DNA of 47,134 nt from Verrucomicrobiales bacterium (GTDB lineage: Bacteria; Verrucomicrobiota; Verrucomicrobiia; Verrucomicrobiales; DEV007), in assembly GCA_028047635.1 (NCBI GenBank), contig JAOFXR010000020.1, forward strand, positions 1 through 47,134, written 5' to 3'. Within the stretch, counting starts at the first letter, position 1; each line of letters opens with the position of its first letter. The position numbers and the translations under genes are program-made. Shown here piece after piece: positions 3,285-47,134 of the stretch. The notes beneath the pieces are model-generated. The model was not told the origin of the DNA. It did not search any database and saw only the letters and a program-made list of their open reading frames with translations.

Positions 3285-5093
3285 ATGATTCAGCGTTCAA
3301 TGAGAAGATACAGCATGCCTCTCCTTTCGGTCACAGTGAAAACAGCCACCTTGAAGGTCTTCCTAATCCTACTTTTCACTCTTCCCACGGTCAGCCAGGA
3401 TCAAGCAAGACAGGTTGAAAATGAGGCAACTGAATCCGCCTTAACAGATACGGAGAACGCTCCGAGACAAACCTCTGATGCGGAAAAATCAGTCGAAGCT
3501 CTCTCCTCGGTTCTCGAATCAATCGAGACCAATCAGAAGAGAATAGAAGAACTCACCGGTGATCTCGCCAAAGCCCCCGAGGTCGAGAAAGAGAACATCA
3601 ACAATGAAATCAGAGCACTCACTGAAGTCAGGGAAGACCTGCAATCGGATTTCGAAACGATCGCCACTGGTATCGATACCGATGAGTATGATGAATCAAC
3701 AGAAGAGAGCTTTGTCCTCGGCGATGAGCTGGACAGTATTCTCGAGCCCATCATCGCGGAATTAAAAGATCTCACCGAGAAACCGCGCGAAATCGAAGCG
3801 CTTCGAAGCGATCTGGCCAGTTGGCGGAAGCGCCTCGTCACGACGGAAACGGCTCTTATTAACCTGAGCAGCATCCCCTCAACCACTGCAGGGGAACTCC
3901 AGAATAACTTAGCTGAAACCCGGCAAAAATGGACTGAGCGGAAAAATCAGGCCGAAAACCGAATCCAGGCCATCACCTACCAACTTGAGCAAGCCGAGCG
4001 GAACAGGCCGTCTTTCATCACTACGATCAGCGAGAGCTTCCGTGGATTCTTTCGCAGCCGGGGACGTAATTTTCTTCTCTGCCTCTTCGTTTTCTTCCTC
4101 ACCTTTTTCCTTTTCCGATTTCTACACCAGCGACTTGATCGTTTAAGTCCGTGGCGCCGCAAAGGCCAGCGCCCGTTCTACATACGCCTCATTGATGTAG
4201 GACTGAACGTCTTTTCCTTCATCGGAGCCGTCGTGGCATCGCTTATCGTTCTCTACGCAACCGGTGACTGGGTTCTCATGGGCCTCGCCATCATCATTCT
4301 CTTCGGCGTCATTCTCGCTGCCAAAAACAGCCTTCCTAAATTCTATGATCATGCTCGAATACTGCTCAACCTCGGAGAAGTGCGTGAAGGAGAGCGAGTC
4401 ATCTTAAACGGTCTCCCATGGCGAATCGAACGACTCAGCTTTTATTCCATTTTGAAAAATGATCAACTTCGCGGCGGCATTATCAGGCTGCCGGTAAAAG
4501 TGCTGGGAGACTGCATTTCACGTCCTATCAGCGAAGAAGGTGAAATGTGGTTTCCCTGCAACGAAGGAGACTGGGTTGACCTACCCGACGAAGGCCGGGG
4601 GAGGATCATCGCGCAAACGCCTGAGTATGTTCAAATGGTAAAGCTCGGTGGCGCAAAAATAACCATCCCCACGATCGACTTTCTCTCAAAAGCGCCGAAA
4701 AACCTCTCTCAGAATTTCCGGATCAAATCGACGTTTGGGATCGATTACAAGCATCAGGCAGATTGCACCGACAAGATCCCCGAAACACTTTGGGCATACA
4801 TCACCAAGGGAATTTACACGATCATTGATGACCGAGAGTCGTTGCTGAGTCTGAAAGTTGAGTTTTCCTCAGCCGGCGCTTCCTCTCTTGATTACGAAAT
4901 CATTGCTGATTTCGGAGGAGAACATGCTCCGCGATACGAAATGCTTTTGCGCGCCCTGCAACGCCTCGCAGTCGAATGCTCCAATGAAAACGGATGGGAA
5001 ATCCCCTTCACGCAGATCACCCTGCACAATGCTTACCCGGAAGACAAAAAACCGGAAGTGCCAGAGCCCGCGCCACGGCCCAAACTCCCTTAA
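3285..5093 (+). CDS. MscS-family mechanosensitive channel with long N-terminal coiled coil
   Basis: A 602-residue protein likely to form a pressure-relief channel in the inner membrane. Residues 10-38 look like a signal peptide. Residues 60-245 are charged and rich in heptad-like Glu/Lys/Leu, predicted as a periplasmic coiled coil. Three transmembrane segments lie at about 262-280, 306-325 and 328-347. The MscS beta-domain follows (LGEVREGERVILNGLPWRIE, then RLPVKVLGD), and a soluble alpha/beta tail runs to a Pro-rich end (PEPAPRPKLP). The architecture recalls the larger MscK/YbdG-type members rather than the small MscS. It is divergent from the antiporter gene across 75 bp, so the two may share control by ion or osmotic stress; that is inference. 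Confidence 0.82.
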   Translation: MIQRSMRRYSMPLLSVTVKTATLKVFLILLFTLPTVSQDQARQVENEATESALTDTENAPRQTSDAEKSVEALSSVLESIETNQKRIEELTGDLAKAPEVEKENINNEIRALTEVREDLQSDFETIATGIDTDEYDESTEESFVLGDELDSILEPIIAELKDLTEKPREIEALRSDLASWRKRLVTTETALINLSSIPSTTAGELQNNLAETRQKWTERKNQAENRIQAITYQLEQAERNRPSFITTISESFRGFFRSRGRNFLLCLFVFFLTFFLFRFLHQRLDRLSPWRRKGQRPFYIRLIDVGLNVFSFIGAVVASLIVLYATGDWVLMGLAIIILFGVILAAKNSLPKFYDHARILLNLGEVREGERVILNGLPWRIERLSFYSILKNDQLRGGIIRLPVKVLGDCISRPISEEGEMWFPCNEGDWVDLPDEGRGRIIAQTPEYVQMVKLGGAKITIPTIDFLSKAPKNLSQNFRIKSTFGIDYKHQADCTDKIPETLWAYITKGIYTIIDDRESLLSLKVEFSSAGASSLDYEIIADFGGEHAPRYEMLLRALQRLAVECSNENGWEIPFTQITLHNAYPEDKKPEVPEPAPRPKLP

Positions 5094-5100
5094 CCGCCAT

Positions 5101-5128
5101 CCCTCAAAATATGAGGGACTAAAATTTT
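5101..5128 (+). terminator. Candidate hairpin terminator after the MscS-like gene
   Basis: Inverted repeat CCCTCA (5101-5106) and TGAGGG (5112-5117) with a 5-nt loop, followed by ACTAAAATTTT. It begins 7 bp after the stop codon of the channel gene. The T tract is short and slightly offset, so intrinsic termination is likely but not certain. Confidence 0.45.
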
Positions 5129-5162
5129 CCGAATTTTCACACGAACAGGCTCCGTGATAACG

Positions 5163-5190
5163 TTGACTTTCGTATCCTGAACTCTACACT
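5163..5190 (+). promoter_or_regulatory. Candidate sigma70-type promoter for the Deg protease pair
   Basis: TTGACT (5163-5168) and TACACT (5185-5190) are separated by 16 bp and lie about 60 bp upstream of the ATG at 5249. Match is by eye to the TTGACA/TATAAT consensus. Confidence 0.45.
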
Positions 5191-5248
5191 TCCCACTCCT
5201 CGGTATTGGCATGCATTGAGCCAAATCGGGAAGTCTTACTGAACTTAT

Positions 5249-6997
5249 ATGAAAGCCCTTCATCCTTTCTTTTCACGCTCCACACTAATCGTGAGCCTGC
5301 TTCTGGCATCGAGCACTGCCTATGTGTTTGCCCAGAAAACAGCCGCACCTGCGCCAGGACCGAGACTCGCTCCCCCGTCCAAATCTCCCGTACTGGTTCC
5401 CGGGCCGATAACACCTCCCTCGGCACCATCGGCGGATGTCACCATTTCCGAATCTCAACAGGCCGATATTTCTGAAATCGATTTTGATGCCATTGTTCGA
5501 GTCGAGGTTGACACGAAGCAGCCAAACTTTCGCGTTCCGTGGAATATCGGAGGCATGGGAAGCGGCAACGGAACCGGTTTTCTCGTTGGCCCTAATCGCT
5601 TTCTGACCAACGCACACGTAGTTAGCAACAGCCGGCTTATTTATATTAAGAAAGTCAGCGATCCCAAGCCCTACAAGGCCCGCGTCGTTAACGTCGCCCA
5701 CGACTGTGACCTCGCGCTTCTTGAGCTTGAGTCAGACACGGAGTTCGAATCCGCTTTCAAGGATCTCACTCCCCTCTTTATCGGAGGCCTTCCCAAACTG
5801 AACACGACCGTTGTTGCCGTCGGATACCCCATCGGCGGTGAGCGTATCTCCGTAACCCGCGGTGTTGTCTCACGTATCGACTTCCGCGCTTACAGTCACT
5901 CCAGCGTAGACAACCACCTTGCTATTCAGGTTGATGCCGCGATCAACCCTGGAAACTCCGGCGGCCCAGTCCTTCAAAACAACCAGGTCGTCGGCGTTGC
6001 CTTCCAGGGCTACTCCGGAAATGTTGCCCAAAACACGGGATACATGATCCCTGTTCCCGTGATCGAACGATTCCTTAAAGATGTCGAAGACGGCAGCTAT
6101 GATCATTACGTCGATATTGCGACAAGCATTCTTAATATCCTCAACCCCGCTCAGCGCCGCGCCCTTGGCCTGCCGAATGACGGAATTGGCGTCATGGTTG
6201 CCGTAGCCGACGTTTCCGGTTCAGCTGGCGGTATTCTTGAAACCAAGGACGTGCTCCTTTCCATTGAAGGTCACCCCATCGCCTCCGACGGATTCATCGA
6301 GATTGAAGGCGAGCGAGTTGATCTCAACGAAATCATCGAGCGCAAGTTCGCAGGCGACACCGTTGATTTGGAAATCTGGAGAGATGGCAGCCGCAAGGAA
6401 GTCGTCCTCGAGCTAAAGCGGTTCATCCCCTACCTCATCCAGTCGAGCCAGTATGACAAACTTCCCAACTTCGTGCTCTACGCCGGCCTTCAGTTCCAGC
6501 CACTGGATCGCAACATGATGGCAGCCCACTCGATCACAGATCTCGAAACACGCTACTTCTACAATTACTACAGCCAGGATGAGCTCTACCGCGAGCGCCC
6601 TCAGGTCATTGCGCTAACGGAAGTGCTTCCCGACACCGCCAACACCCACCTTCAGCCATACGTTCACAAGGTCATCGACAAGATTAACGGAAAGAAGATT
6701 CGCCTTCTCCAGGACGTGTTTGACGCCTTCCACGGCGATTTCCACGAAGAAGGCCACGAAGACTATCACGTCGTGCGCCTGATCGGCGAAGGTCGCCCCC
6801 TCGTTTTGAAACGAAAAGAATCAGCCATTGCTCATGAGCGGGTCAAAGCCAAATATAATGTGGGTTTCGACCACTTCATCGAAGAACCTGAAATCCTTCA
6901 GCTCAAAGGTCTTTTCGGTGAAGACGGTGAAGAAATAAACCCGGAAAAGAAAGAAGTGCCCACCGCTGAAGCCACAGAGGAAAAGAAAGCGGCCTGA
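5249..6997 (+). CDS. Deg/HtrA-like periplasmic serine protease with PDZ domains
   Basis: A 582-residue secreted trypsin-fold protease, expected to degrade or remodel damaged envelope proteins. Residues 1-28 are a signal peptide (hydrophobic core, AYVFA-Q cleavage) followed by a Pro/Ala-rich linker to about 60. The protease domain shows the full triad: His123 in FLTNAHVV, Asp154 in DCDLALLEL and Ser237 in NPGNSGGPVL. A PDZ-like domain follows near 300-405 (DVLLSIEGHPIASDG) and a third module near 430-555 resembles the C-terminal PDZ domain of plant Deg-type proteases (KVIDKINGKKIRLLQDVFDA). The tail is rich in Glu and Lys. The next gene, 51 bp downstream on the same strand, is a degenerate paralogue, so the two are probably co-transcribed and may act together. 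Confidence 0.9.
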   Translation: MKALHPFFSRSTLIVSLLLASSTAYVFAQKTAAPAPGPRLAPPSKSPVLVPGPITPPSAPSADVTISESQQADISEIDFDAIVRVEVDTKQPNFRVPWNIGGMGSGNGTGFLVGPNRFLTNAHVVSNSRLIYIKKVSDPKPYKARVVNVAHDCDLALLELESDTEFESAFKDLTPLFIGGLPKLNTTVVAVGYPIGGERISVTRGVVSRIDFRAYSHSSVDNHLAIQVDAAINPGNSGGPVLQNNQVVGVAFQGYSGNVAQNTGYMIPVPVIERFLKDVEDGSYDHYVDIATSILNILNPAQRRALGLPNDGIGVMVAVADVSGSAGGILETKDVLLSIEGHPIASDGFIEIEGERVDLNEIIERKFAGDTVDLEIWRDGSRKEVVLELKRFIPYLIQSSQYDKLPNFVLYAGLQFQPLDRNMMAAHSITDLETRYFYNYYSQDELYRERPQVIALTEVLPDTANTHLQPYVHKVIDKINGKKIRLLQDVFDAFHGDFHEEGHEDYHVVRLIGEGRPLVLKRKESAIAHERVKAKYNVGFDHFIEEPEILQLKGLFGEDGEEINPEKKEVPTAEATEEKKAA

Positions 6998-9674: not shown

Positions 9675-11609
9675 ATGGATAGAACATCCTGGATTGGGGC
9701 GCTTGTTTGCCTCGGACTTCTCTTTGGATGGGGCTGGTGGAGCTCTAAAGAAGCTGCCAAGCAGGCCGTAGAACGCGCGCGTCTCGCTGAGATTGCTGCC
9801 GCGAATGCACCTCCTGCCACCGATCCCAAGAACGCCACAACCGCCCCCGCTGCTACCAAATCAGCTACAGGTGAAGAAACCACTGCGGTTGCCCCTCCAG
9901 CGGAAGCGAAAGAGTCCATTCTTGAAAACGAAGGCCTTAAACTTCACCTCACGACAAGAGGCGCCGGAATTCGCATCGCCGAACTTCGTGATCACAAACG
10001 TTACCTCGAGGGTGATGAGCTGATCACAATCAACCGCACCGCCTCCAACGGCGTCGCTGTCATCTCCGAAGGCCCGGGGCTCTTCGACGAGACCAATTGG
10101 GAGTTTGTCTCACAGGACGCTGCCTCAGCTACCTACAAAACCACGACTCCTGCTGGATTTGAGCTGACAAAGACCTTCACTCTTCCCACCGGTGAAGAAT
10201 ATGACTCCCATGAGGTTCTGCTGGAGATGACCGTCAGAAACGCGGGCGAAACCCCACTGAACTTTGCCAATCGCTATCTCTACACCGGTTCAGCAGCCCC
10301 ATTACACCTTAATGAGTGGTCCATGCAAATCGGCATGTATTGGATGAACAAGAGTAGTAAATTCGAATACGAAACCGTCGACTATTTCGGAGGAAAGAAA
10401 GTCATGGGCGTGTTTGGGAAGAACGAAATACCATCTGATTCTTTCGGAGTTGAAACCCTCGACTGGGCCGGTGTAAACGACCAGTTTTTCACGACAATGA
10501 TTCGTGCGGAAGAGCCCTACTCTACGAAAATCTGGGGCAGCCGGTTTCCCGTAGTCGTCGAAGATGACGAAGCCGCTTCGCTGAAGAAACGCATGTTTGC
10601 TGCTGAAATGGGCGTTGGTCTTCCCGACCTCACCCTCAACCCGGGCGATCAGCAAACGCTCCGCTACAGCATCTACCTCGGACCAAAAGAATTTTCCCGC
10701 CTCAAAGGACTGGGCGAAGATCGCGAAGAAGTCATGCACTATGACGCCATTCCAATCTTTGGATTTCTCTTTGGTTGGGCAATCAAGCCTCTCGCTTCTT
10801 GGCTCATCATGGGGCTGGTCGCCCTCAATGGACTCGTTGGAAATTTCGGTATCTCGATCATCATCGTCACGATTCTTATTCGCCTTTTGATCTGGCCCGT
10901 CTACGCAAAGTCAGCTCGAAGCATGAAACGGATGTCCAAACTGACTCCGTTGATGAAGGAAATTAAGGAGAAGTATGCCGATGATCCCCAAAAGGTGAAT
11001 CAGGAGACCATGAAGCTGTATCAAACCTACGGCATCAATCCTCTCGGCGGCTGTTTGCCGATGTTCATCCAGCTTCCCGTTTTCCTCGCCTTCTATCGCA
11101 TGCTTTGGAGCGCGGTTGAGCTGCGCCACGAATCGTTCCTCTGGGTCGATGACCTTTCGATGCCCGACTACCTCTTCACGATTCCCGGGCTCGAGATCCC
11201 ATTCAATCTCCTCCCCATCCTCATGGGACTGACGAGTTTTATCCAAATCGCGATCACTCCGAAGACCGGGGACAAGACGCAGCAGATGATCTTCATGTTC
11301 ATGCCGCTGATCTTCCTTGTGATCTGTTACAACTTTGCCGCAGCACTCGCACTCTACTGGACGACTTCAAACGCCTTCTCAATCCTCCAGACCTGGCTCA
11401 TGAACAAGATGCCCGAGCCCGAGCTGAAAAAGAAAGCGAGCTCCGGCAAAAAAGGCTTCATGGCAAGAATGCAGGATCAAGCTGAAGCCGCTCAGAAAGC
11501 CAAGGCAGCTGGTGGCAGCGCCCCGGCTCCCGGCGGCGCCAAGAGCCGCACCAAGATGCCCGGAGAAAAAGGTGATCGTCACACCAAGGGCAAAAAGAAG
11601 AAGCGCTAA
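9675..11609 (+). CDS. yidC: Membrane protein insertase YidC
   Basis: A 644-residue inner-membrane insertase (from the ATG at 9675; a GTG at 9666 would add three residues). Residues 1-22 form the N-terminal membrane anchor (MDRTSWIGALVCLGLLFGWG). A long Ala/Thr/Pro linker precedes the large periplasmic beta-domain. The conserved insertase core starts near residue 365 (IFGFLFGWAIKPL) and includes the groove arginine in TILIRLLIWP, then KMKxL-like amphipathic helices and GGCLPMFIQLPVFLAFYRML. The C-terminal tail is Lys/Arg rich (KGKKKKR), as is usual for ribosome contact. It lies 30 bp upstream of jag and follows yidD. Confidence 0.95.
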   Translation: MDRTSWIGALVCLGLLFGWGWWSSKEAAKQAVERARLAEIAAANAPPATDPKNATTAPAATKSATGEETTAVAPPAEAKESILENEGLKLHLTTRGAGIRIAELRDHKRYLEGDELITINRTASNGVAVISEGPGLFDETNWEFVSQDAASATYKTTTPAGFELTKTFTLPTGEEYDSHEVLLEMTVRNAGETPLNFANRYLYTGSAAPLHLNEWSMQIGMYWMNKSSKFEYETVDYFGGKKVMGVFGKNEIPSDSFGVETLDWAGVNDQFFTTMIRAEEPYSTKIWGSRFPVVVEDDEAASLKKRMFAAEMGVGLPDLTLNPGDQQTLRYSIYLGPKEFSRLKGLGEDREEVMHYDAIPIFGFLFGWAIKPLASWLIMGLVALNGLVGNFGISIIIVTILIRLLIWPVYAKSARSMKRMSKLTPLMKEIKEKYADDPQKVNQETMKLYQTYGINPLGGCLPMFIQLPVFLAFYRMLWSAVELRHESFLWVDDLSMPDYLFTIPGLEIPFNLLPILMGLTSFIQIAITPKTGDKTQQMIFMFMPLIFLVICYNFAAALALYWTTSNAFSILQTWLMNKMPEPELKKKASSGKKGFMARMQDQAEAAQKAKAAGGSAPAPGGAKSRTKMPGEKGDRHTKGKKKKR

Positions 11610-31880: not shown

Positions 31881-32229
31881 TTAATTCTAAGAGTCTCACC
31901 TCAAGCCATTTAGAAAAACGGTAATCCCGCTTCGGAATATTTCGCCGAAACTAGCTCCACTTCCCACCCGCCTTGGCACAGCAAATGCGACACTAACATA
32001 CCGTCAGATGGCCATTGGCCAAACGACAAAGGGTTGAAACCAAAACGTCGGCCCGATTGGTATATGTTCTTTAGCAGGTTTTACGGGGATTTTTCCTGCG
32101 ACAATCAATCGGGTCGATAGTTTCCCTCCTCAAGTGTTCTTCAGCCTCCCTGGCAATTTCTATTTCCCCCACCACAAACACGCAAAGACGTTGTTTGCAG
32201 GGCTCTCATTTACATCGAAGTTCCTCGAA
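31881..32229. other. Intergenic region with long inverted repeat, before the CxxCH/DUF1553 gene
   Basis: No gene is seen in this gap. It contains a palindrome GGCCATTGGCC at 32010-32020 and the inverted repeat at 32048-32117 described separately. The region is rich in structure compared with the other gaps of the window. Confidence 0.5.
32048..32117 (+). promoter_or_regulatory. Candidate structured 5' leader: long inverted repeat with nested stem
   Basis: TCGGCCCGATTG (32048-32059) pairs with CAATCGGGTCGA (32106-32117): 11 of 12 Watson-Crick pairs and one G-U in RNA. An inner stem GCAGG (32074-32078) / CCTGC (32095-32099) lies inside. The repeat ends 112 bp before the ATG at 32230. It could be a leader RNA, a cruciform-forming DNA site or a small RNA; none of these can be chosen from the sequence. 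Confidence 0.4.
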
Positions 32230-35094
32230 ATGACCGCAACCAAGGCCAGCATCCTTATTACTTTCCTCGTGTCGCTTGCGACATCGGGCGCGGTTTTTTG
32301 TGCGGATCCGCCCCCTACTTTCGAACCCGCCCAGATTGAGTTTTTCGAGAAAGAAATTCGTCCGATTTTGGCAGACAACTGCCTCGACTGCCATTCCGGC
32401 ACGAAGGCGAAAGTAGGACTTCAGCTCGATCATCGCGAAGGATGGATTTCCGGAAGCGACTACCGGAAAGTGATCCAACTCGACAAGCCTGCCGAAAGCA
32501 TTCTCGTTAAAGCAATCAAGCACTCCGGAGAAAAAGGCATCCTCTCCATGCCTGAGAAAGGCGATAAGCTGGCTGATGCTGACATCGAAAAGATCACCCA
32601 GTGGATTACGATGGGACTTCCCTGGCCTGAATACGAGGATTCAGAAAACATCGATCCGTCCGAGCACTGGTCATTTCAGCCGGTAAAAAAGCCCCCGCTT
32701 CCTGAGGACGCGGGACATCCGATTGACTACTTTTTGAAAGAGGCAAAAAAGAAAGTCGGAGTCGTTTCCGCCGACAAGGCTGATCGAAAGACACTTTACC
32801 GCCGTGCTCACTTTGATCTTCTCGGCCTGCCGCCAAAATTTGATGAGGCAGAAAAGTTCATCGCGGATTCCCGTCCCGATCAGGAGGCCTGGCCCGCACT
32901 TATAGATCAGCTACTTACTTCGCCTCATTATGGCGAACGCTGGGCACGGCAATGGATGGACATTGCCCGCTACTCAGATACAAAAGGCTACGAGGGCGCG
33001 GGGCGCGAAAGGCGGTTCGTCTACAGCTACGCCTATCGCAACTGGCTCATCAAATCGCTCAACGATGATCTCCCTTACGACAAGTTTCTGCTCTATCAGT
33101 TGGCCGCCGAACAACTCGTTGATTGGAACTCTCCTGAGAAAACGCATCTCGCCGCACTCGGATTCCTCTCCCTCAGCAAAAACGGGAAAACCGAACTCGT
33201 GATCGATGATAGAATCGACACAACGTTCCGGGGAATGATGGCCTTGACCGTTTCCTGCGCGCGCTGTCACGACCATAAATTCGATCCTATTTCTACTTCA
33301 GAATATTACGGTCTTTACGGAGTCTTCATGAATTCGTTCAAAGAAGAACGTCCCGAAGTAGGCGAACCAAAAATGGGTCCGGAGTGGGATAAATATCTAA
33401 AGGACAGAGCCGCGCAGCAGAAGCTGATCGATGATTTTCTTGCTCCCAAATTCGCAAAGCTCCGAAAAGAAGATCCAAAGCTCACTGACGACCGTGCTCT
33501 CCTAACCAGTAAGCTAAGCCGCGCAGACAAAAGAGAGCTGACAAAAAAGCAGGGAGTCTATGACAAGTTCGTTGCCGATGCAAAGATGGATCCTGACAAG
33601 GCCATTATTTTAGTCGATACAGAAAAGCCCAGAGCGCAACGTATCTTCATTAGGGGAGCGCCGGGGCGACAAGGCGATGAAGCGCCGCGCCGCTTTTTGA
33701 CCTTCGGCAAAGAAGTCGATCCGGTTGCTTTCACAAAAGGGAGCGGACGTCTCGAACTCGCACAGCAAATCGTAACCCCTGACAATCCACTAACTGCACG
33801 CAACATCGTAAACCGCGTCTGGATGTGGCATTTTGGTGAAGGAATCGTTCGCACGATCGATGATTTCGGGATCCAGGGAGAGCTTCCCGATCATCCCGAG
33901 CTTCTCGATTTCCTTGCGACCTGGTTTGTCGAGAATGGCTGGTCGATCAAGGAATTACACCGGCTCATTCTAACTTCCGAGACGTGGCAGCAAACCTCAG
34001 TGAATACAGCGGAAGAGAAAAATATGTTCGTTGATCCGGAGAATCGGCTTCTGTGGAAATATAACAAACGCCGTCTCGATCTCGAGCAGATGCGCGACGG
34101 AATCCTTGATGTCACAGGAACTCTCAGCGAGGAAATGTATGGACGCACCGTCAAGATCCTGGAGCCACCTTATTCAAATCGTCGTTCCGTTTATGCTTTC
34201 ATCGACAGACAAAATTTAAATCCGATTTTCCGGAATTTTGATTTTTCCAACCCGCAGGAAACGACTGCGAAACGCCCCTCAACAACGATCCCAATGCAGG
34301 CACTCTTCACGATGAACAGCAAGTTCATGCAGGATCGCGCCACAGAGCTCGCGAAAAAGGGAGTCACTCAGAAAGATCCGATCCAGCTCTATCACCGTGC
34401 GGTTTTCGCGAAAGAACCGACCGAAAATGATAGACTCCTTGCCGATAGTTTCTTCACTTCGGTTGAATCGGAAATGAAGGAATACGCCAAACGCCAAACG
34501 AACACCGCCTGGAGTTACGGATACGGCGAGCATGACGAGAAAAGCGAAAAAGTCTCTTTTACACCCTATCCGCTTTGGACCGGAACGCAGTGGCAGATAG
34601 AAAAGGAGACGCCGATTAAAAACAACCCGCTTTCCTATCTCTACGCCAGAGCGGGAGCAACTCACCCGGGCCACACCTCGAAAGAAAGTTCAATCTACCA
34701 GTGGCAAGCGCCGTCCGACCTGAGAGTGCGAATCGCGGGCATTATCGAACGGAATGCCGTCGGGAAAGGAAATGGAGTAAAAGTCAAAGTGATCACCAAT
34801 GGAGGCAAACTACTTTTCGATAAGGTGATGGATCCGGCAAAGAAAGCGATCCCCGTGACCGTCGATGCTTTCGACATTGCGAAAAACGATCTCATCTATT
34901 TCATCATCGATCCGCATGAGAATAACTCCGCATTCGACTCCGTCACCTGGAGCCCGCAAGTGATCGACGCCAGCGGTAAAATCCCTAAATGGGGTCTCTC
35001 GGATTCTTTCTCAGGCCCAGCGACTCCGGCGACACCCCACAGCGCCTACGTCCACGCCCTTCTGAACACGAACCGGTTTCTTTTCATCGAATAA
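32230..35094 (+). CDS. Secreted CxxCH (PSCyt1)/DUF1549/DUF1553 protein
   Basis: A 954-residue protein of a family abundant in Planctomycetota and Verrucomicrobiota. A signal peptide (residues 1-24, ending VFCA-D) precedes a planctomycete-type cytochrome c-like domain with Cys51-x-x-Cys54-His55 (NCLDCHSG). DUF1549 follows (about 165-370, RAHFDLLGLPP, CARCHDHKFDPI), then DUF1553 from about 495 (LTARNIVNRVWMWHFGEG...). A beta-rich segment of about 160 residues (YARAGATHPGHTSK to VTWSPQVIDASG) is inserted before the last DUF1553 motif (HALLNTNRFLFIE). The start at 32230 follows from the signal peptide. It is followed by the DUF1501 gene after 20 bp, the usual partner. Sugar breakdown is often proposed for such pairs; the function is unproven. 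Confidence 0.88.
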   Translation: MTATKASILITFLVSLATSGAVFCADPPPTFEPAQIEFFEKEIRPILADNCLDCHSGTKAKVGLQLDHREGWISGSDYRKVIQLDKPAESILVKAIKHSGEKGILSMPEKGDKLADADIEKITQWITMGLPWPEYEDSENIDPSEHWSFQPVKKPPLPEDAGHPIDYFLKEAKKKVGVVSADKADRKTLYRRAHFDLLGLPPKFDEAEKFIADSRPDQEAWPALIDQLLTSPHYGERWARQWMDIARYSDTKGYEGAGRERRFVYSYAYRNWLIKSLNDDLPYDKFLLYQLAAEQLVDWNSPEKTHLAALGFLSLSKNGKTELVIDDRIDTTFRGMMALTVSCARCHDHKFDPISTSEYYGLYGVFMNSFKEERPEVGEPKMGPEWDKYLKDRAAQQKLIDDFLAPKFAKLRKEDPKLTDDRALLTSKLSRADKRELTKKQGVYDKFVADAKMDPDKAIILVDTEKPRAQRIFIRGAPGRQGDEAPRRFLTFGKEVDPVAFTKGSGRLELAQQIVTPDNPLTARNIVNRVWMWHFGEGIVRTIDDFGIQGELPDHPELLDFLATWFVENGWSIKELHRLILTSETWQQTSVNTAEEKNMFVDPENRLLWKYNKRRLDLEQMRDGILDVTGTLSEEMYGRTVKILEPPYSNRRSVYAFIDRQNLNPIFRNFDFSNPQETTAKRPSTTIPMQALFTMNSKFMQDRATELAKKGVTQKDPIQLYHRAVFAKEPTENDRLLADSFFTSVESEMKEYAKRQTNTAWSYGYGEHDEKSEKVSFTPYPLWTGTQWQIEKETPIKNNPLSYLYARAGATHPGHTSKESSIYQWQAPSDLRVRIAGIIERNAVGKGNGVKVKVITNGGKLLFDKVMDPAKKAIPVTVDAFDIAKNDLIYFIIDPHENNSAFDSVTWSPQVIDASGKIPKWGLSDSFSGPATPATPHSAYVHALLNTNRFLFIE

Positions 35095-35114
35095 CCCTTT
35101 CTTCCGGAACGATC

Positions 35115-36536
35115 ATGACACCACCTTTTTCACGACGCGAATTGCTTCAGCGCACCGGCATGGGAATGGGCGCCCTCGGCATGAGTCCCTTTTTGTCCTC
35201 GCTCAACGCGGGTGACCGATCGCTCAATCCGCTCGCTCCGGGAAAGACTCATTTTGCGCCTAAGGCGAAGCGGGTCATCCATATTTTTGCAAACGGTGGA
35301 CCCTCACAGGTTGATTCGTTCGACTACAAACCGGAGCTCGAGAAATACCACGGGAAGGAAGTTCCCGGCGGGGGCTTGAGGACAGAAAGAAAAACAGGGA
35401 CACTGATGAAGTCGCCCTTCAACTTTTCCCAACACGGAAAGTCCGGCCTGTGGGCGAGTGATCTTTTTCCCAAAGTAGCGGCAATGGCCGACGATCTCTG
35501 CGTCATCAATTCGATGTATGCCAACGTGCCTAATCACGAGCCATCACTGATGCTCATGAACACCGGTGCTGAGCGCGTTAATCTCGTGCGCCCGAGCATG
35601 GGCAGTTGGGTCACGTATGGTCTTGGGACGGAGAACGAAAATCTTCCCGGCTTCGTTTCCCTCTGCCCCGGTGGTGTGCCTATCGTGGAAACCCAAAACT
35701 GGCGATCAGCATTTTTACCAGGAGCTTATCAGGGCGCTCACGTCGACACGAAAAACACGCTCATTTCGAAACTGATTCCCGATATTCGCAATCAACGCAT
35801 GCCCACGGAGATCCAACGAAAGCAACTCGATCTCGTCCAGGAAATGAACCGCCAGGACATTGGCAACGCACCCGTTGATCCTGATATGGAAGCGCGGATG
35901 CATTCGCTCGAACTGGCTTACAAAATGCAGATCGAAGCCACGGATGCATTCAACGTTGATCGCGAACCACAGCACATTCGCGACCTCTACGGCGACACCT
36001 TACACGGACGCCAAATGCTGATTGCGAGAAGACTGGTCGAGCGCGGAACCCGATTTGTTCAAGTGTGGCACGGCGCAGGTCAGCCTTGGGACAGCCACGC
36101 GGAGATCGCGAAGAATCACGGAAGGCTTGGAGCCGAAGCCGATCAACCCATCGCCGCGCTTCTGATGGATCTCAAACAACGGGGCCTACTCGAAGACACG
36201 CTCGTGATCTGGGGCGGTGAGTTTGGAAGAACCCCTACCGTTGAACTTCCAACTCCGGGGTCAAATGCTGCCGACACGAAATTGGGCCGGGATCACAATC
36301 ATCACGGATTCACGATGTGGATGGCCGGAGGCGGAGCCAAAGGTGGTTTCCAATATGGTCAGACTGACGAATTTGGATTTAAAGCAGTGGAGAATCCAAT
36401 GCACGTCCACGATCTCCATGCCACTATTTTACACCTGTTAGGCTTCGATCACGAGAAACTCACCTACCGCTACGCAGGAAGGGACTTCCGCCTAACTGAT
36501 GTACACGGCGAGGTGTTTCACGATCTGATTGCTTAA
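35115..36536 (+). CDS. Tat-exported DUF1501 protein
   Basis: A 473-residue protein with a twin-arginine-type N-terminus: SRRELLQRTGMGMGALGMSP has RR at residues 7-8 and a moderately hydrophobic stretch. The DUF1501 domain (sulfatase/phosphatase-like fold) follows: KRVIHIFANGGPSQVDSFDY, VQVWHGAGQPWDSHAEIAKN, VIWGGEFGRTPT and RDHNHHGFTMWMAGG. The His/Asp-rich signature is in order. The start at 35115 was chosen because the twin Arg follows directly; a longer frame from 34989 overlaps the preceding gene by 106 bp. It forms a pair with the CxxCH/DUF1553 protein 20 bp upstream. Confidence 0.9.
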   Translation: MTPPFSRRELLQRTGMGMGALGMSPFLSSLNAGDRSLNPLAPGKTHFAPKAKRVIHIFANGGPSQVDSFDYKPELEKYHGKEVPGGGLRTERKTGTLMKSPFNFSQHGKSGLWASDLFPKVAAMADDLCVINSMYANVPNHEPSLMLMNTGAERVNLVRPSMGSWVTYGLGTENENLPGFVSLCPGGVPIVETQNWRSAFLPGAYQGAHVDTKNTLISKLIPDIRNQRMPTEIQRKQLDLVQEMNRQDIGNAPVDPDMEARMHSLELAYKMQIEATDAFNVDREPQHIRDLYGDTLHGRQMLIARRLVERGTRFVQVWHGAGQPWDSHAEIAKNHGRLGAEADQPIAALLMDLKQRGLLEDTLVIWGGEFGRTPTVELPTPGSNAADTKLGRDHNHHGFTMWMAGGGAKGGFQYGQTDEFGFKAVENPMHVHDLHATILHLLGFDHEKLTYRYAGRDFRLTDVHGEVFHDLIA

Positions 36537-42816: not shown

Positions 42817-43515
42817 ATGTTTGAAGCTACCGAATATTTCGACCTTGCTGAGACCGAGCACGATACACTTTTCGAGAGCAATGCCCCCGTCTGGACTGCT
42901 CTCGGCCACATTGCCTCGTATCTTGAGCAAAAACTTACTGAAGTCGATGGCGAACTGATTCAAGGCTCCGTTCATCCGACCGCAATCGTCGGGCCGAATG
43001 TTTACCTCGCTGAGGGAGCCGCCGTCGAAGCAAAGGCCGTTATCCAGGGCCCTGCATGGATCGGTGCAGGAACCGTTGTCAGAAGCGGGGCCTACCTTCG
43101 AAACAACGTCATTGCAGGAGAAAATTGCACACTCGGGAATTCCTGCGAATTCAAGAACTGCCTTCTATTCAACAACGTAGAAGTGCCCCATTTCAACTAT
43201 GTCGGTGATGCCATACTCGGACACAAAGCGCACCTCGGTGCCGGGGTAATCTGCTCTAACGTTCGTCTCGACCGACGCAATGTCGTCGTGCGCGGAGCGG
43301 AGGGGCAACTCATCGACACCGGTCTCAGAAAGCTCAGCGCCATCGTCGGAGATCGCACCGAGATTGGCTGCAATTCTGTCCTCAGTCCCGGATCCATTCT
43401 CGGAAAAGACTGTATTCTGTATCCGCTCACCCACTGGCAGGGAGTTCTAGACGACGCTCAAATTGTGAAGACAAAGCAGCCCCAGGACGTCGTCGCACGA
43501 CGGATGAAAGACTAA
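42817..43515 (+). CDS. Left-handed beta-helix (GlmU C-terminal-like) protein
   Basis: A 232-residue protein with hexapeptide-repeat character from about residue 48 to 205: IVGPNVYLAEGAAVEAKAVI, then AWIGAGTVVRSGAYLRNNV, and ending with AIVGDRTEIGCNSVLSPGSI. It resembles the acyltransferase half of UDP-sugar pyrophosphorylase/GlmU proteins, without the N-terminal nucleotidyltransferase domain. The Met at 42817 (MFEATEYFDL) is preferred to 42763, because the 18 added residues fall in the repeat element. It may act on a nucleotide sugar. The stop overlaps by 4 bp the end of the convergent AcpS-LpxL gene. Confidence 0.72.
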   Translation: MFEATEYFDLAETEHDTLFESNAPVWTALGHIASYLEQKLTEVDGELIQGSVHPTAIVGPNVYLAEGAAVEAKAVIQGPAWIGAGTVVRSGAYLRNNVIAGENCTLGNSCEFKNCLLFNNVEVPHFNYVGDAILGHKAHLGAGVICSNVRLDRRNVVVRGAEGQLIDTGLRKLSAIVGDRTEIGCNSVLSPGSILGKDCILYPLTHWQGVLDDAQIVKTKQPQDVVARRMKD

Positions 43516-44714
43516 TCTTTCGATGCTTGATCGACTTTCCAGCGTTTGTGCATCCAGATCCATTGCTCGGGATGCTCGAGGATAAATCCCTCTAACACTT
43601 CGTTAAACCGTTTCGTATTTTTCGCAATAATATCACGCGTTCTCCCCTCGGTAACGATGTCTACGGGAGGAGAAAATTTCAGGACATGGGTGCCGTCCGG
43701 CTCGCGCCAACTATGCGAAGGAACTACCGGAGCTCCCGTAAACTGAGCAAGAACAGCGAGACTTTTAAACGTGCTCGCAGGATGACCGAAGAACTCCGAA
43801 ACGATTCCGTATTTGGGAATGGTGTGCTGATCAAAAATGGAAACGACGATATGATTATCTTCAAGCAGATTAAGAATATCATCGAGTGATCCGCTTTTCT
43901 CGAGCGTTCCGAATCCCGCTTTCCGAAAACGTCGCATCACGAAATCATTGAACCACTTCGGTTTGAGTGGGCGGCGAATAAAGTGGAAGAGCCCGTCATA
44001 GGCTGTGAATTGAGTGATTCCCGCCACGGTCGAGACTTCCCAGTTTCCAAAATGACCACTGAGAAGAAGGACGCCTTTACCCAACTCTCTTGCCGCATCA
44101 ACATGCTCACCACCTTCAACGCGAATGATGCCTTCCTTCTTCCGTGAGGACATAAAAGGAAGGCTGACAAATTCGCCGGAAAACTTGAGAAAATGCCCGT
44201 AAAAAGCCTGAGCAAGGGTCTCAATCTGTTGCTCATCGAGCGTCTCCCCAAAGACTCGAGTAAGGTTGGAGAGCACTGTTTCCCGCTTAATTGGAAGGCA
44301 GTGAAACATCACTTTTCCATACCATGGCGCGACTATATTTTTCACTTCGGCATTGGCAACCGCCGTGGCGCTTCCTTCGGTATGTGTCATAGAGAGATCA
44401 ATCGTATCAATGAAGTGGCGATTCATAACCGCCCTGGCTTTAGCGCTCGGAAGCGCAGAGGGTTTTCCGTAACCATCCTTCGTTACAGAGAAATCCACCG
44501 GCTCAATGGTTCCGAGACAGATTTCTTTTGGAAACAGTTTACAGCAAGCCTCCTTGGCGGCAAACCGGGCAGCGAGCTTTTGCGCTCGATTGCCACTGGT
44601 CCCCGAATCGGCGAGCTCTTCGGCAGAAAAAAATTGAGACAATCCTTCCGCATCAAGATCAGCGAGTAGCTTCTCAATTCGCGAAATTTCGACCGTATCT
44701 ATTCCCGTTCGCAT
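43512..44714 (-). CDS. Holo-ACP synthase (AcpS) fused to LpxL-type lipid acyltransferase
   Basis: A 400-residue protein with two enzyme domains in one uninterrupted frame. Residues 1-123 resemble AcpS, which attaches 4'-phosphopantetheine to acyl carrier protein: Asp6 in TGIDTVEISRIE, FAAKEACCKL with Glu55, and a final SMTHTEGSATAVA. Residues 125-400 resemble lipid A biosynthesis acyltransferases (LpxL/HtrB type): LLLSGHFGNWEVS has the HX4E signature (His221, Glu226), with DQHTIPKYGIVSEFFG and PEQWIWMHKRWK. The N-terminal membrane helix of a stand-alone LpxL is missing. It lies 70 bp downstream of two ketosynthase genes. I infer that it works on the same ACP-bound acyl chain and a membrane acceptor, as in aryl polyene clusters. 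Confidence 0.8.
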   Translation of the reverse strand: MRTGIDTVEISRIEKLLADLDAEGLSQFFSAEELADSGTSGNRAQKLAARFAAKEACCKLFPKEICLGTIEPVDFSVTKDGYGKPSALPSAKARAVMNRHFIDTIDLSMTHTEGSATAVANAEVKNIVAPWYGKVMFHCLPIKRETVLSNLTRVFGETLDEQQIETLAQAFYGHFLKFSGEFVSLPFMSSRKKEGIIRVEGGEHVDAARELGKGVLLLSGHFGNWEVSTVAGITQFTAYDGLFHFIRRPLKPKWFNDFVMRRFRKAGFGTLEKSGSLDDILNLLEDNHIVVSIFDQHTIPKYGIVSEFFGHPASTFKSLAVLAQFTGAPVVPSHSWREPDGTHVLKFSPPVDIVTEGRTRDIIAKNTKRFNEVLEGFILEHPEQWIWMHKRWKVDQASKD

Positions 44715-44784: not shown

Positions 44785-46059
44785 TTACGCCGACACGATC
44801 ACAGCAACATTCATTCCACCGAATCCACGACAGATCACGAGTGCTTTGTCGCTGCGAGGTGTCACCGCATCTTTCGATACAGGAAAGCCGCTAATCTCAT
44901 CATCCACATTCTTGAGCGTAGCAATCCCCGGAACCGTCTTCTGCTTCAGCGCTTCCAATGTCATGACGATATCAGCAATACCGGATGCACCGATGAGGTG
45001 TCCGTAGGCCCACTTGAAGCCTGTAACAGGAGGAATATCATCACCAAAAACGCTGGTAATACCGATGGCTTCACTCAAATCAGAAGCAGGCGTTCCATTT
45101 CCGTGGGCGCAAATCATTCCGATATCCGAAGGCTCGAGACCTGCGTCGTTCAAGGCCTGCTCCACCGAGCGCTTCACGCCATCACCATCTTCCTTCAGAT
45201 CAAGAACTCCGGTGGCCTCACTGCAACAGCCCCAGCCTAAAAATTCGCCCAGCACATTCGCGCCACGAGCTTCCGCATCAGAGGCTTTTTCAAGCGTGAC
45301 CGAAGCGGCGCCCTCGCCAAAAACCGTTCCGTTTCTAGCTTCGTCAAAGGGACGAGGCGCTTCACCTGAAATGAGCCCCAGCTTATAGTAGTAGAGCACC
45401 ATCTCCGGCTCAAACGGGGCATCGTGGCCTGCCGCAATAATGCGATCCGCTTCGTCGTTCAATATCGCCGAAGCTGATTCAGCCACCGCCATGATTCCAC
45501 TCGCACATTGATTCGTGATACAGGCATTCGTTCCTTTGAACTGCCCCCTAATCCCCACATGACAGAGCACATTGTTGGGTAAATTTTTCAGCAACCACAT
45601 CGGCGTGACCTGAGCACTGAGCTCGGTGCCGAAGGCATGCAACTCCCCCTTCGCCTCATGCATGAGAGGAAGGTAGTCATAATTACTCGTGTAATTTCCG
45701 CCGCCTGAACCCACGATAAGGCCGGTTCGATCATTAAACGTCACGACTTCCTCTTCGCTGAGACCTTCGCGATGTTGGAGAATGCCCGAATTCTCAATCG
45801 CCTTCTCCGACGCATAAATTCCCAACATATCCGTTCGGGAAATCGTTTTATGCAATTTGCGATCCGGAACCAAAGTCCGGTTGTTCTCTTTGACCTCGGA
45901 CGCCACTTTAACCGGCCATTTTTCACCGTTCCAGCGCTCGTAGGGCGCCACAGAAGTTACGCCGCTGATAAGCGTGCTCCACACATCCTCAACCGTCGCT
46001 CCGGATCCGCAAACGATGCCGCTTCCGGTGATGACTATTTTTTCGTCACGAACACTCAT
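44785..46059 (-). CDS. Beta-ketoacyl-ACP synthase, FabF-like (KS1)
   Basis: A 424-residue thiolase-fold condensing enzyme. The active-site residues appear intact: Cys185 in TNQCASG (usual TACASG), His319 in ICAHGNGTP and His354 in KWAYGHLIGASG, with Lys349. It is therefore a probable ketosynthase rather than a Cys-less chain-length factor, although the flanking sequence of the Cys is unusual. The ATG at 46059 overlaps the stop of KS2 by 4 bp (ATGA), so the two are translated together. AcpS-LpxL follows. Both belong to a likely secondary lipid cluster. Confidence 0.88.
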   Translation of the reverse strand: MSVRDEKIVITGSGIVCGSGATVEDVWSTLISGVTSVAPYERWNGEKWPVKVASEVKENNRTLVPDRKLHKTISRTDMLGIYASEKAIENSGILQHREGLSEEEVVTFNDRTGLIVGSGGGNYTSNYDYLPLMHEAKGELHAFGTELSAQVTPMWLLKNLPNNVLCHVGIRGQFKGTNACITNQCASGIMAVAESASAILNDEADRIIAAGHDAPFEPEMVLYYYKLGLISGEAPRPFDEARNGTVFGEGAASVTLEKASDAEARGANVLGEFLGWGCCSEATGVLDLKEDGDGVKRSVEQALNDAGLEPSDIGMICAHGNGTPASDLSEAIGITSVFGDDIPPVTGFKWAYGHLIGASGIADIVMTLEALKQKTVPGIATLKNVDDEISGFPVSKDAVTPRSDKALVICRGFGGMNVAVIVSA

Positions 46060-47134
46060 GAATTTACCTCCTCTGGATTGCGGAAAACAAGCGAGCTATT
46101 CGAACCACCGAATCCGAGCGAGTTCGAAAGCGCTGCTCTAATTCGACCCGGCGATGGCTTATCCAACACCAAATTAACATCACAGTCAGGATCAGGCTCG
46201 CCGTAATTAGCATTTAGCGGCGAGAGGCTGTCACGAATCGCAAGACAGCATACAGCAGCCTCGACCGCTCCTGCCGCGGCGATAAGATGTCCCATACAAC
46301 TCTTCGTCGAACTCACTTTAACCTCATCAACGCGACCCTCAAACACGTGCTTCAAGGCCGCGCACTCACTGCGGTCATTCATCTGAGTGGACGTGCCATG
46401 AGCATTTACATAATCAATGTCTCCGGCATCAAGCCCGGCGTCTCCGAGAGCCTGCTCGATCGCCTGAATCGGCCCGTTCCCGTCCGGCGGTGAATCAGTG
46501 ATTCGATAACAGCTCAATGAGTTACCATCACCCGCCAGCTCAGCGTAAATGGTGGCTCCGCGCGCCACGGCCTTATCCCAATCTTCGAGAACGAGAAAAC
46601 CAGCGCCCTCTCCCAACACAAAACCATTCCGCGATTTATCAAACGGTCGGCTCGCTCCGGTTGGATTATCATTATCAGTCGAAAGCGCTCCGAGCAGACA
46701 AAAACCCGAAATCCCAATTGGATTGATCATCGAATCAAATCCACCGGCCAGCATGTAATCACACTGACCGCGACGCATTGCCTTGAGAGCAGATCCGACC
46801 GCCTGGCCACCTGAGGCACACGCCGTATGAACCGCTGTCGCATACCCACGAATCCCGAACTGTTTCGTCAGAAGCCCCAGCCCGGCATTGGACTGCCATC
46901 GGCAAAAGTTCGACGGGTTGGCGGGAAACTCAGGATCTGCCAATCCATCAGAGTCAAAAAAACCATCCTCCGTGGCGTGGTCATAAACCACTTTTAGATC
47001 GTCATAGCCGACTGACATCATCCCTGCGCCCACGGCGAGCCCCCAACTATGAGAATCTTCAGCCGTCGGAGCGATCCCGGCGTCGGCAAGCGCTTCCGCG
47101 GCGGCGGTGAGAGCAAAACCGTGTGACCGGGAAG
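46056..47134 (-). CDS. Beta-ketoacyl-ACP synthase, FabF-like (KS2), truncated at window edge
   Basis: At least 359 residues are in the window and the reading frame stays open to its end (SRSHGFALTAAAEALADAGI is visible before the apparent start), so the gene continues beyond 47134. All KS catalytic elements are present: TACASG (nucleophile Cys), AHGTSTQMND (His) and SSTKSCMGHLIAAAGA (Lys and His). The C-terminus LSNSLGFGGSNSSLVF is typical. It overlaps KS1 by 4 bp. An internal GTG at 47033 could be mistaken for the start. Upstream genes of this operon lie outside the window. Confidence 0.88.
   Translation of the reverse strand, partial: SRSHGFALTAAAEALADAGIAPTAEDSHSWGLAVGAGMMSVGYDDLKVVYDHATEDGFFDSDGLADPEFPANPSNFCRWQSNAGLGLLTKQFGIRGYATAVHTACASGGQAVGSALKAMRRGQCDYMLAGGFDSMINPIGISGFCLLGALSTDNDNPTGASRPFDKSRNGFVLGEGAGFLVLEDWDKAVARGATIYAELAGDGNSLSCYRITDSPPDGNGPIQAIEQALGDAGLDAGDIDYVNAHGTSTQMNDRSECAALKHVFEGRVDEVKVSSTKSCMGHLIAAAGAVEAAVCCLAIRDSLSPLNANYGEPDPDCDVNLVLDKPSPGRIRAALSNSLGFGGSNSSLVFRNPEEVNS

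What the first reader, a model, noticed from the sequence alone, without database searches (positions are those of the whole stretch)
43512..44714. Fusion of holo-ACP synthase and LpxL-type acyltransferase
One intact frame joins an AcpS domain (residues 1-123) to an LpxL-like domain with HX4E (221-226). This couples ACP activation and acyl transfer to a membrane acceptor in a single protein, next to two ketosynthases. Such a fusion is uncommon and may mark a new ACP-dependent lipid or pigment system.
Basis: partly seen in the sequence, partly recalled or inferred. Interest (0 to 1): 0.7.

Follow-up and report, generated by a model that had tools for sequence, protein, structure and literature searches.

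The report
ACP-priming enzyme fused to lipid acyltransferase
One bacterial protein joins the enzyme that switches on a fatty-acid carrier to the enzyme that probably delivers the finished fatty acid to a cell-envelope lipid; the fusion is real, conserved in a group of Verrucomicrobia, and sits in a fatty-acid operon resembling the one rhizobia use to put very long fatty acids on their outer membrane.

Summary
Window 43512-44714 (-) is one intact 400-aa frame: AcpS (1-123) plus an LpxL-type acyltransferase (133-393). It is not an assembly join: 41 of 45 Verrucomicrobiota loci encode it full length. In 42 aligned copies, AcpS D6/E55/K59 are invariant, the LpxL histidine is 42/42 and its glutamate 41/42. 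Both domains look under purifying selection. The AcpS part stands where LpxL normally has its membrane anchor.

The window ends inside the operon. Relatives show enoyl reductase (FabL type), ketoreductase, ACP, double-hotdog dehydratase, KS1, KS2, AcpS:LpxL. This gene set parallels the rhizobial acpXL-lpxXL cluster for very-long-chain fatty acids on lipid A. The ACP is nearest AcpXL of three ACPs compared, and KS1 groups with a rhizobial cluster ketosynthase. ACP, LpxL and KS2 fail strict membership tests. No aryl-polyene accessory gene was found in the loci.

Best reading: a verrucomicrobial variant of the acpXL-lpxXL kind, with a built-in PPTase. Product and acceptor are unproven. "Lipid" is supported; "pigment" is not.

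The parts
43512..44714 (-). AcpS:LpxL fusion gene (400 aa)
44346..44714 (-). AcpS (4'-phosphopantetheinyl transferase) domain, residues 1-123; D6, E55, K59, T110-H111 invariant in 42 of 42 copies
44319..44345 (-). short linker, residues 124-132, at the place where LpxL proteins carry their N-terminal membrane anchor (anchor recalled)
   Evidence: (profile match begins at position 42 of 295)
43536..44318 (-). LpxL/LpxM/PatA-type acyltransferase domain, residues 133-393, with H221-x4-E226
44785..46059 (-). KS2, divergent beta-ketoacyl-ACP synthase; Cys-His-His triad kept across the family
46056..47132 (-). KS1, FabF-like beta-ketoacyl-ACP synthase, 5' part missing at the contig end

Best explanation
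The gene is the last step of a dedicated type II fatty-acid elongation operon. In relatives the order is ER (FabL type) - KR - ACP - DH - KS1 - KS2 - AcpS:LpxL. The AcpS domain puts the phosphopantetheine arm on the operon's own AcpXL-like ACP. KS1/KS2, KR, DH and, where kept, ER lengthen an acyl chain on that ACP. The LpxL domain then moves the acyl group from the same ACP to a sugar-lipid acceptor at the inner face of the inner membrane, most likely lipid A, as LpxXL does in rhizobia. The AcpS domain takes the place of the usual LpxL membrane anchor; because AcpS enzymes are trimers (recalled), it probably also makes the acyltransferase trimeric and ACP-binding. Shown: architecture, conservation of both active sites, operon content in relatives, a lipid A pathway gene (LpxK) in the genome. 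Inferred: substrate ACP, chain length, acceptor, trimer.
For: Intact conserved fusion. Operon in 28 fusion loci with at least 6 kb upstream: KS1+KS2 27, DH 26, KR+ACP 23, intact FabL-type ER 17. FabL: 325.1 bits against a cut-off of 328, next family 190.6. ACP profile against one S. meliloti AcpXL 91.6, E. coli AcpP 59.0, one aryl-polyene ACP 47.0; it shares the S(I/L)DFLDIVF signature with AcpXL. KS1 with rhizobial-type cluster KS at 97/87. Gene types match the acpXL-lpxXL cluster (PMC5613085 passages), in which fabF2XL and adhA2XL mutants lose lipid A VLCFA in A. fabrum (PMC11901934 passages). LpxK in 54 of 56 genomes, the window's own included. Each of 12 fusion genomes checked has at least one further PPTase-superfamily match, so the fused one is extra.
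Against: No genome of 56 has an ACP over the NCBIfam AcpXL cut-off (best 58.1 of 83 bits); generic ACP families score slightly higher than AcpXL for the L032 ACP (58.8 and 57.0 against 55.2 bits); a fold search ranks ordinary ACPs above AcpXL. The LpxL domain is not sister to LpxXL. KS1's best single pairwise match is E. coli FabF (286 against 225 bits). KS2 keeps its Cys-His-His triad whereas the rhizobial FabF2XL-type KS has lost its Cys and one His. KS1 with housekeeping FabF or with ApeO is not rejected (p-AU 0.11, 0.179). The closest solved fold to the LpxL part is PatA, which acylates phosphatidylinositol mannoside. Two loci have LpxL without AcpS (L072, L073), so the fusion is dispensable. 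The ER is deleted or absent in several lineages, including the window's nearest relative. The window itself shows only KS1, KS2 and the fusion.
Confidence: 0.5

Rival explanations
1. Same machinery, different cargo or acceptor: a specialised acyl chain (not necessarily very long) is placed on a glycolipid, phospholipid or aminolipid other than lipid A.
For: LpxL-fold enzymes have several acceptors (recalled); PatA is the best solved match. In six loci (L052, L055, L060, L061, L066, L072) a protein family lies upstream that matches the condensation superfamily in two of three members scanned, in some loci with a hydrolase-like lipoprotein and an ICMT/PEMT methyltransferase, which hints at further lipid tailoring.
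Against: Those extra genes were not seen in loci of the window's genus group. LpxK is present and the gene set matches the lipid A VLCFA cluster.
Confidence: 0.3
2. Aryl-polyene or flexirubin-type pigment cluster, as the first reader half proposed.
For: Two KSs, KR, DH, ACP and an acyltransferase are shared roles; the KR also matches FlxB (225 bits, cut-off 340) below FabG (264.6 bits).
Against: No match to nine aryl-polyene accessory proteins in the ORFs of 45 loci, with a positive control. FabL-type ER in 17 of 28 operons. ACP least like the one aryl-polyene ACP tested. The E. coli aryl-polyene cluster has no dedicated PPTase (PMC8253772 passages). KS1 with ApeR rejected, p-AU 0.019, though KS1 with ApeO is not, 0.179.
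Confidence: 0.07
3. The AcpS domain is a structural scaffold (trimer maker, ACP dock) that no longer primes ACP.
For: Each of 12 fusion genomes checked has another PPTase match. The domain falls short of the TIGR00516 cut-off (47.2 of 59.8 bits). Two loci dispense with it.
Against: D6, E55 and K59 (catalytic by comparison with E. coli AcpS; roles recalled) and the T-H motif are invariant in 42 of 42 copies; low dN/dS.
Confidence: 0.1

Closest known systems
Rhizobial acpXL-fabZXL-fabF2XL-fabF1XL-adhA2XL-lpxXL cluster (VLCFA of lipid A)
   Same: Dedicated ACP, dehydratase, two KSs, a reductase and an LpxL-type transferase in one cluster (PMC5613085, PMC11901934 passages). The M. bullatum cluster also carries an SDR ketoreductase and an MDR reductase (unannotated there, MDR named by eye). 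ACP nearest to it of three compared, KS1 grouped with it.
   Different: AcpS fused to LpxL; N-terminal anchor region missing; ER is SDR/FabL type, not MDR; dehydratase is a double hotdog; KS2 keeps its triad; ACP is about 40 residues longer; LpxL not sister to LpxXL.
AcpS holo-ACP synthase
   Same: Fold, catalytic residues
   Different: Fused; in the window's genome a second copy beside a stand-alone AcpS
LpxL/LpxM and PatA acyltransferases
   Same: Fold and HX4E motif
   Different: N-terminal anchor region replaced by AcpS
Aryl polyene cluster (E. coli CFT073)
   Same: KS, KR, DH, ACP roles
   Different: No starter ligase, exporter, thioesterase or Lol-type genes found; ER present in most complete operons

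Membership tests
acpXL-lpxXL VLCFA cluster | Gene types acp, fabZ, two fabF, lpxL-type together | tested here: met
   in relatives: KS1+KS2 27/28, DH 26/28, ACP+KR 23/28; in the window itself only KS1, KS2 and LpxL are visible
acpXL-lpxXL VLCFA cluster | ACP over the NCBIfam PRK06508 cut-off (taken as AcpXL; name recalled) | tested here: not met
   0 of 56 genomes over 83 bits, best 58.1; yet hhalign is nearest AcpXL of the three tested
acpXL-lpxXL VLCFA cluster | LpxL domain groups with LpxXL | tested here: not met
   13 fusion rows of 42 used; separate clade
acpXL-lpxXL VLCFA cluster | One KS has lost Cys and the first His (as S. meliloti and M. bullatum KS_a) | tested here: not met
   KS2 Cys 38/39, His 39/39
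acpXL-lpxXL VLCFA cluster | KS1 groups with FabF1XL | tested here: inconclusive
   97/87 support, rival with housekeeping FabF p-AU 0.11
acpXL-lpxXL VLCFA cluster | VLCFA on lipid A | not testable with these tools
   needs lipid A chemistry
AcpS/PPTase superfamily | PF01648 and TIGR00556 cut-offs, catalytic D/E/K | tested here: met
   37.5 vs 25 bits; 52.7 vs 45.35 bits; residues invariant; the AcpS equivalog TIGR00516 is missed (47.2 vs 59.8)
LpxL/LpxM superfamily | PF03279 cut-off, HX4E | tested here: met
   142.9 vs 22.3 bits; H 42/42, E 41/42; no NCBIfam equivalog cut-off reached among the 25 listed
Aryl polyene cluster | Starter ligase, exporter, thioesterase, Lol-type genes | tested here: not met
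   no hit of nine CFT073 proteins in ORFs of 45 loci (3.2-21 kb each), control KS 83 hits

The most novel reading that the evidence does not exclude
A self-priming acyltransferase: one anchorless, probably trimeric protein both activates a private ACP and unloads the finished acyl chain from it, so the ACP starts and ends its cycle on the same enzyme, giving Verrucomicrobia an independently assembled very-long-chain lipid A pathway.
Probability: 0.3. Interest if true: 0.65.

Novelty: new variant of a known kind. Interest (0 to 1): 0.5.

Why it matters
If right, it predicts very-long or otherwise special acyl chains on the envelope lipid of uncultured Verrucomicrobiota, a trait reported from rhizobia and some intracellular bacteria (PMC11901934 passages), and offers a protein in which ACP priming and acyl unloading can be studied in one molecule. 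No paper on an AcpS-LpxL fusion was noticed in the listings (15 of 139 shown; 12 of 84 shown). One search (all 6 shown) gave nothing on verrucomicrobial VLCFA lipid A. One search gave one paper with both acpXL and Verrucomicrobia, a river metagenome that mentions them in separate places (passages).

Tried and rejected
Assembly artefact: rejected, 41 of 45 loci. KS2-AcpS-LpxL triple fusion in L041: rejected, the 786-aa frame is only an open frame upstream. Aryl polyene: see rivals. Finding the missing upstream operon in the window's own genome: L032 DNA gave only two weak hits on other contigs, and the AcpXL-family search found a single ACP in G000, of the ordinary score class; the MAG is 63% complete. 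LpxL as an LpxXL orthologue: not supported. AcpXL by fold: not supported, the specialised-ACP entry 3lmo ranks 35. KS2 placement in the KS tree: left open, long branches. Poribacteria, Lentisphaerota and one Deltaproteobacteria-labelled locus (12 non-Verrucomicrobiota loci) match the LpxL part only, and no KS or ACP match was seen among their called ORFs.

Full report
What is there. The ORF at window 43512-44714 (-) is intact and 400 aa long. Pfam finds ACPS at 4-88 and Lip_A_acyltrans at 133-393, both over their cut-offs. NCBIfam places the N-terminus in the PPTase domain family TIGR00556 (over cut-off) but under the AcpS equivalog cut-off, and the C-terminus among LpxL-like families without reaching any of the equivalog cut-offs listed (25 of 27 families shown). 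Upstream on the same strand lie KS2 (44785-46059) and KS1 (46056-47132, cut by the end of the contig). The window is the whole contig C107 of a 3.18-Mb MAG in 193 contigs, 63% complete.

The fusion is real. A scan of genome contigs gave 57 loci, 45 of them in records labelled Verrucomicrobiota or groups within it. Of these 45, 41 encode the fusion full length; L070 and L074 are contig-edge halves of one genome; L072 and L073 have the acyltransferase without AcpS. The 12 other loci (Poribacteria, Lentisphaerota, one labelled Deltaproteobacteria) match the acyltransferase only. The scan uses short peptide patterns, so distant fusions elsewhere could be missed. Among the 56 nearest genomes, 24 (the window's own included) have it full length, all within the genus group of 33; two more of that group (G001, G013) have pieces; none of the 23 genomes outside the genus has it (several of these genomes are the same as). 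In an even draw of 387 genomes of the phylum only the window's own has it at E 1e-40 (one other genome matched the acyltransferase part alone). In a tree with 13 of the 42 copies the fused acyltransferases form one clade (96/80), with L072 and L073 nested inside it, so AcpS was probably lost there secondarily.

Both halves are kept working. In 42 copies (41 loci plus the window) D6, E55, K59 and T110-H111 of AcpS are invariant, as is H221 of LpxL; E226 is kept in 41 of 42 (R in L049). Mean pairwise identity is 0.640 for AcpS and 0.615 for LpxL. dN/dS was at most 0.15 in both domains in the seven pairs compared, with dS saturated or near it in several and not computable for one domain of one pair. 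The AlphaFold2 model (pLDDT 88.7, pTM 0.86) matches PatA and LpxM with one part and AcpS structures with the other. The acyltransferase match begins at Pfam position 42 of 295, and the alignment with E. coli LpxL shows the N-terminal region missing, where LpxL has its membrane anchor (recalled). The highest 19-residue hydropathy in the fusions is 0.97-1.62 against 1.56 for E. coli LpxL, so hydropathy alone does not settle whether the fusion is anchorless. The L072 and L073 proteins start at the same point and lack that region too.

The operon. The nearest relative L032 (94% identical fusion) and L033 show the gene order ER - KR - ACP - DH - KS1 - KS2 - AcpS:LpxL. Of 28 fusion loci with at least 6 kb upstream, KS1+KS2 are present in 27, DH in 26, KR and ACP in 23, and an intact FabL-type ER in 17; the ER is truncated in 3 (L032, L043, L071), absent or decayed in 3 (L035, L045, L048), and the KR/ACP/ER block is missing in 5 (L041, L046, L050, L065, L082) (counts repeated). 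The ER of L033 scores 325.1 bits to FabL (cut-off 328), far above the next family at 190.6. The dehydratase has two hotdog parts. The ACP is about 138 aa with a conserved C-terminal extension (20 aligned). Both KSs keep Cys-His-His (KS1 39/39; KS2 Cys 38/39, His 39/39).

What it resembles. The S. meliloti cluster and the M. bullatum one (unannotated, read from its ORFs) contain ACP, FabZ, two KSs, reductase(s) and LpxXL. PMC5613085 (passages) says five such genes occur in all bacteria that make VLCFA-modified lipid A; PMC11901934 (passages) reports that A. fabrum fabF2XL and adhA2XL mutants lose VLCFA from lipid A. The verrucomicrobial ACP profile is nearer one AcpXL (91.6) than E. coli AcpP (59.0) or one aryl-polyene ACP (47.0); in sequence searches of the PDB the specialised ACP 2kw2 (an AcpXL, recalled) ranks second among ACPs. 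KS1 groups with the cluster KS of S. meliloti, Shinella and M. bullatum (97/87), though grouping with housekeeping FabF (p-AU 0.11) or ApeO (0.179) is not rejected; ApeR is (0.019). Against membership: AcpXL cut-off missed, two generic ACP families score a little above AcpXL, ACP fold search prefers ordinary ACPs, KS1's best pairwise match is E. coli FabF, LpxL not sister to LpxXL, KS2 unlike FabF2XL. So it works like the acpXL-lpxXL cluster but is not filed as a member of it.

Mechanism. The AcpS domain primes the operon ACP, the elongation enzymes build the chain, and the LpxL domain unloads it to an acceptor. LpxK is present in 54 of 56 genomes, the window's own included, so lipid A is an available acceptor. 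All 12 fusion genomes checked have another PPTase match, so the fused domain is an extra, probably dedicated, one. Chain length, acceptor and trimer are inferred; AcpS trimers and LpxL membrane anchoring are recalled, not from a call.

Not an aryl polyene. None of nine aryl-polyene proteins of E. coli CFT073 has a match in the ORFs of the 45 loci (E 1e-3, none at E 10), while the ApeR ketosynthase used as a control gave 83 hits. The E. coli cluster has no PPTase of its own (PMC8253772 passages). The loci span 3.2-21 kb, so genes further off were not examined.

Literature. Searches for verrucomicrobial lipid A with VLCFA, holo-ACP synthase with LpxL, PPTase with lipid A and domain fusion, and acpXL with Verrucomicrobia were seen as listings, capped. 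The one paper names the two words in unrelated places (passages). I noticed no paper on this fusion.

Noticed in passing
L032:4551-5042; L043:about 5117-5293; L071:about 5038-5292: The FabL-type ER gene shows internal deletions that keep its start and its end (which abuts the KR start) but remove the catalytic middle; decayed remnants also in L035 and L045. Loss looks repeated, which may mean the middle is dispensable while translation into KR is kept.
   Followed up: partly
L072 and L073, about 9900-10950: Two operons with LpxL but no AcpS domain, still without the N-terminal anchor region; each genome has one PPTase match elsewhere.
   Followed up: partly
L027, L028, L029, L031: A different LpxL paralogue in verrucomicrobial genomes is a 645-668 aa frame whose C-terminal half looks, by eye, like a GT9 heptosyltransferase: a second LpxL fusion in the phylum.
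   Followed up: no
L052:1371-4342; L060:1465-4492; L066:318-3822; also L055, L061, L072: Upstream of the operon in these loci: a family that matches the condensation superfamily (two of three members scanned), in some also a hydrolase-like lipoprotein and an ICMT/PEMT methyltransferase, suggesting extra lipid tailoring.
   Followed up: partly
G000:C2:52338-53147 and similar places in G007, G012, G014, G025, G029: Type I PKS-like KS domains in open frames of about 4000 aa in the window's genome and its genus.
   Followed up: no
   Followed up: no
window 32134-36536: Two adjacent long ORFs that read by eye like a DUF1549/DUF1553 cytochrome-c protein and a DUF1501 protein, typical of Planctomycetes and Verrucomicrobia (names recalled).
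   Followed up: no
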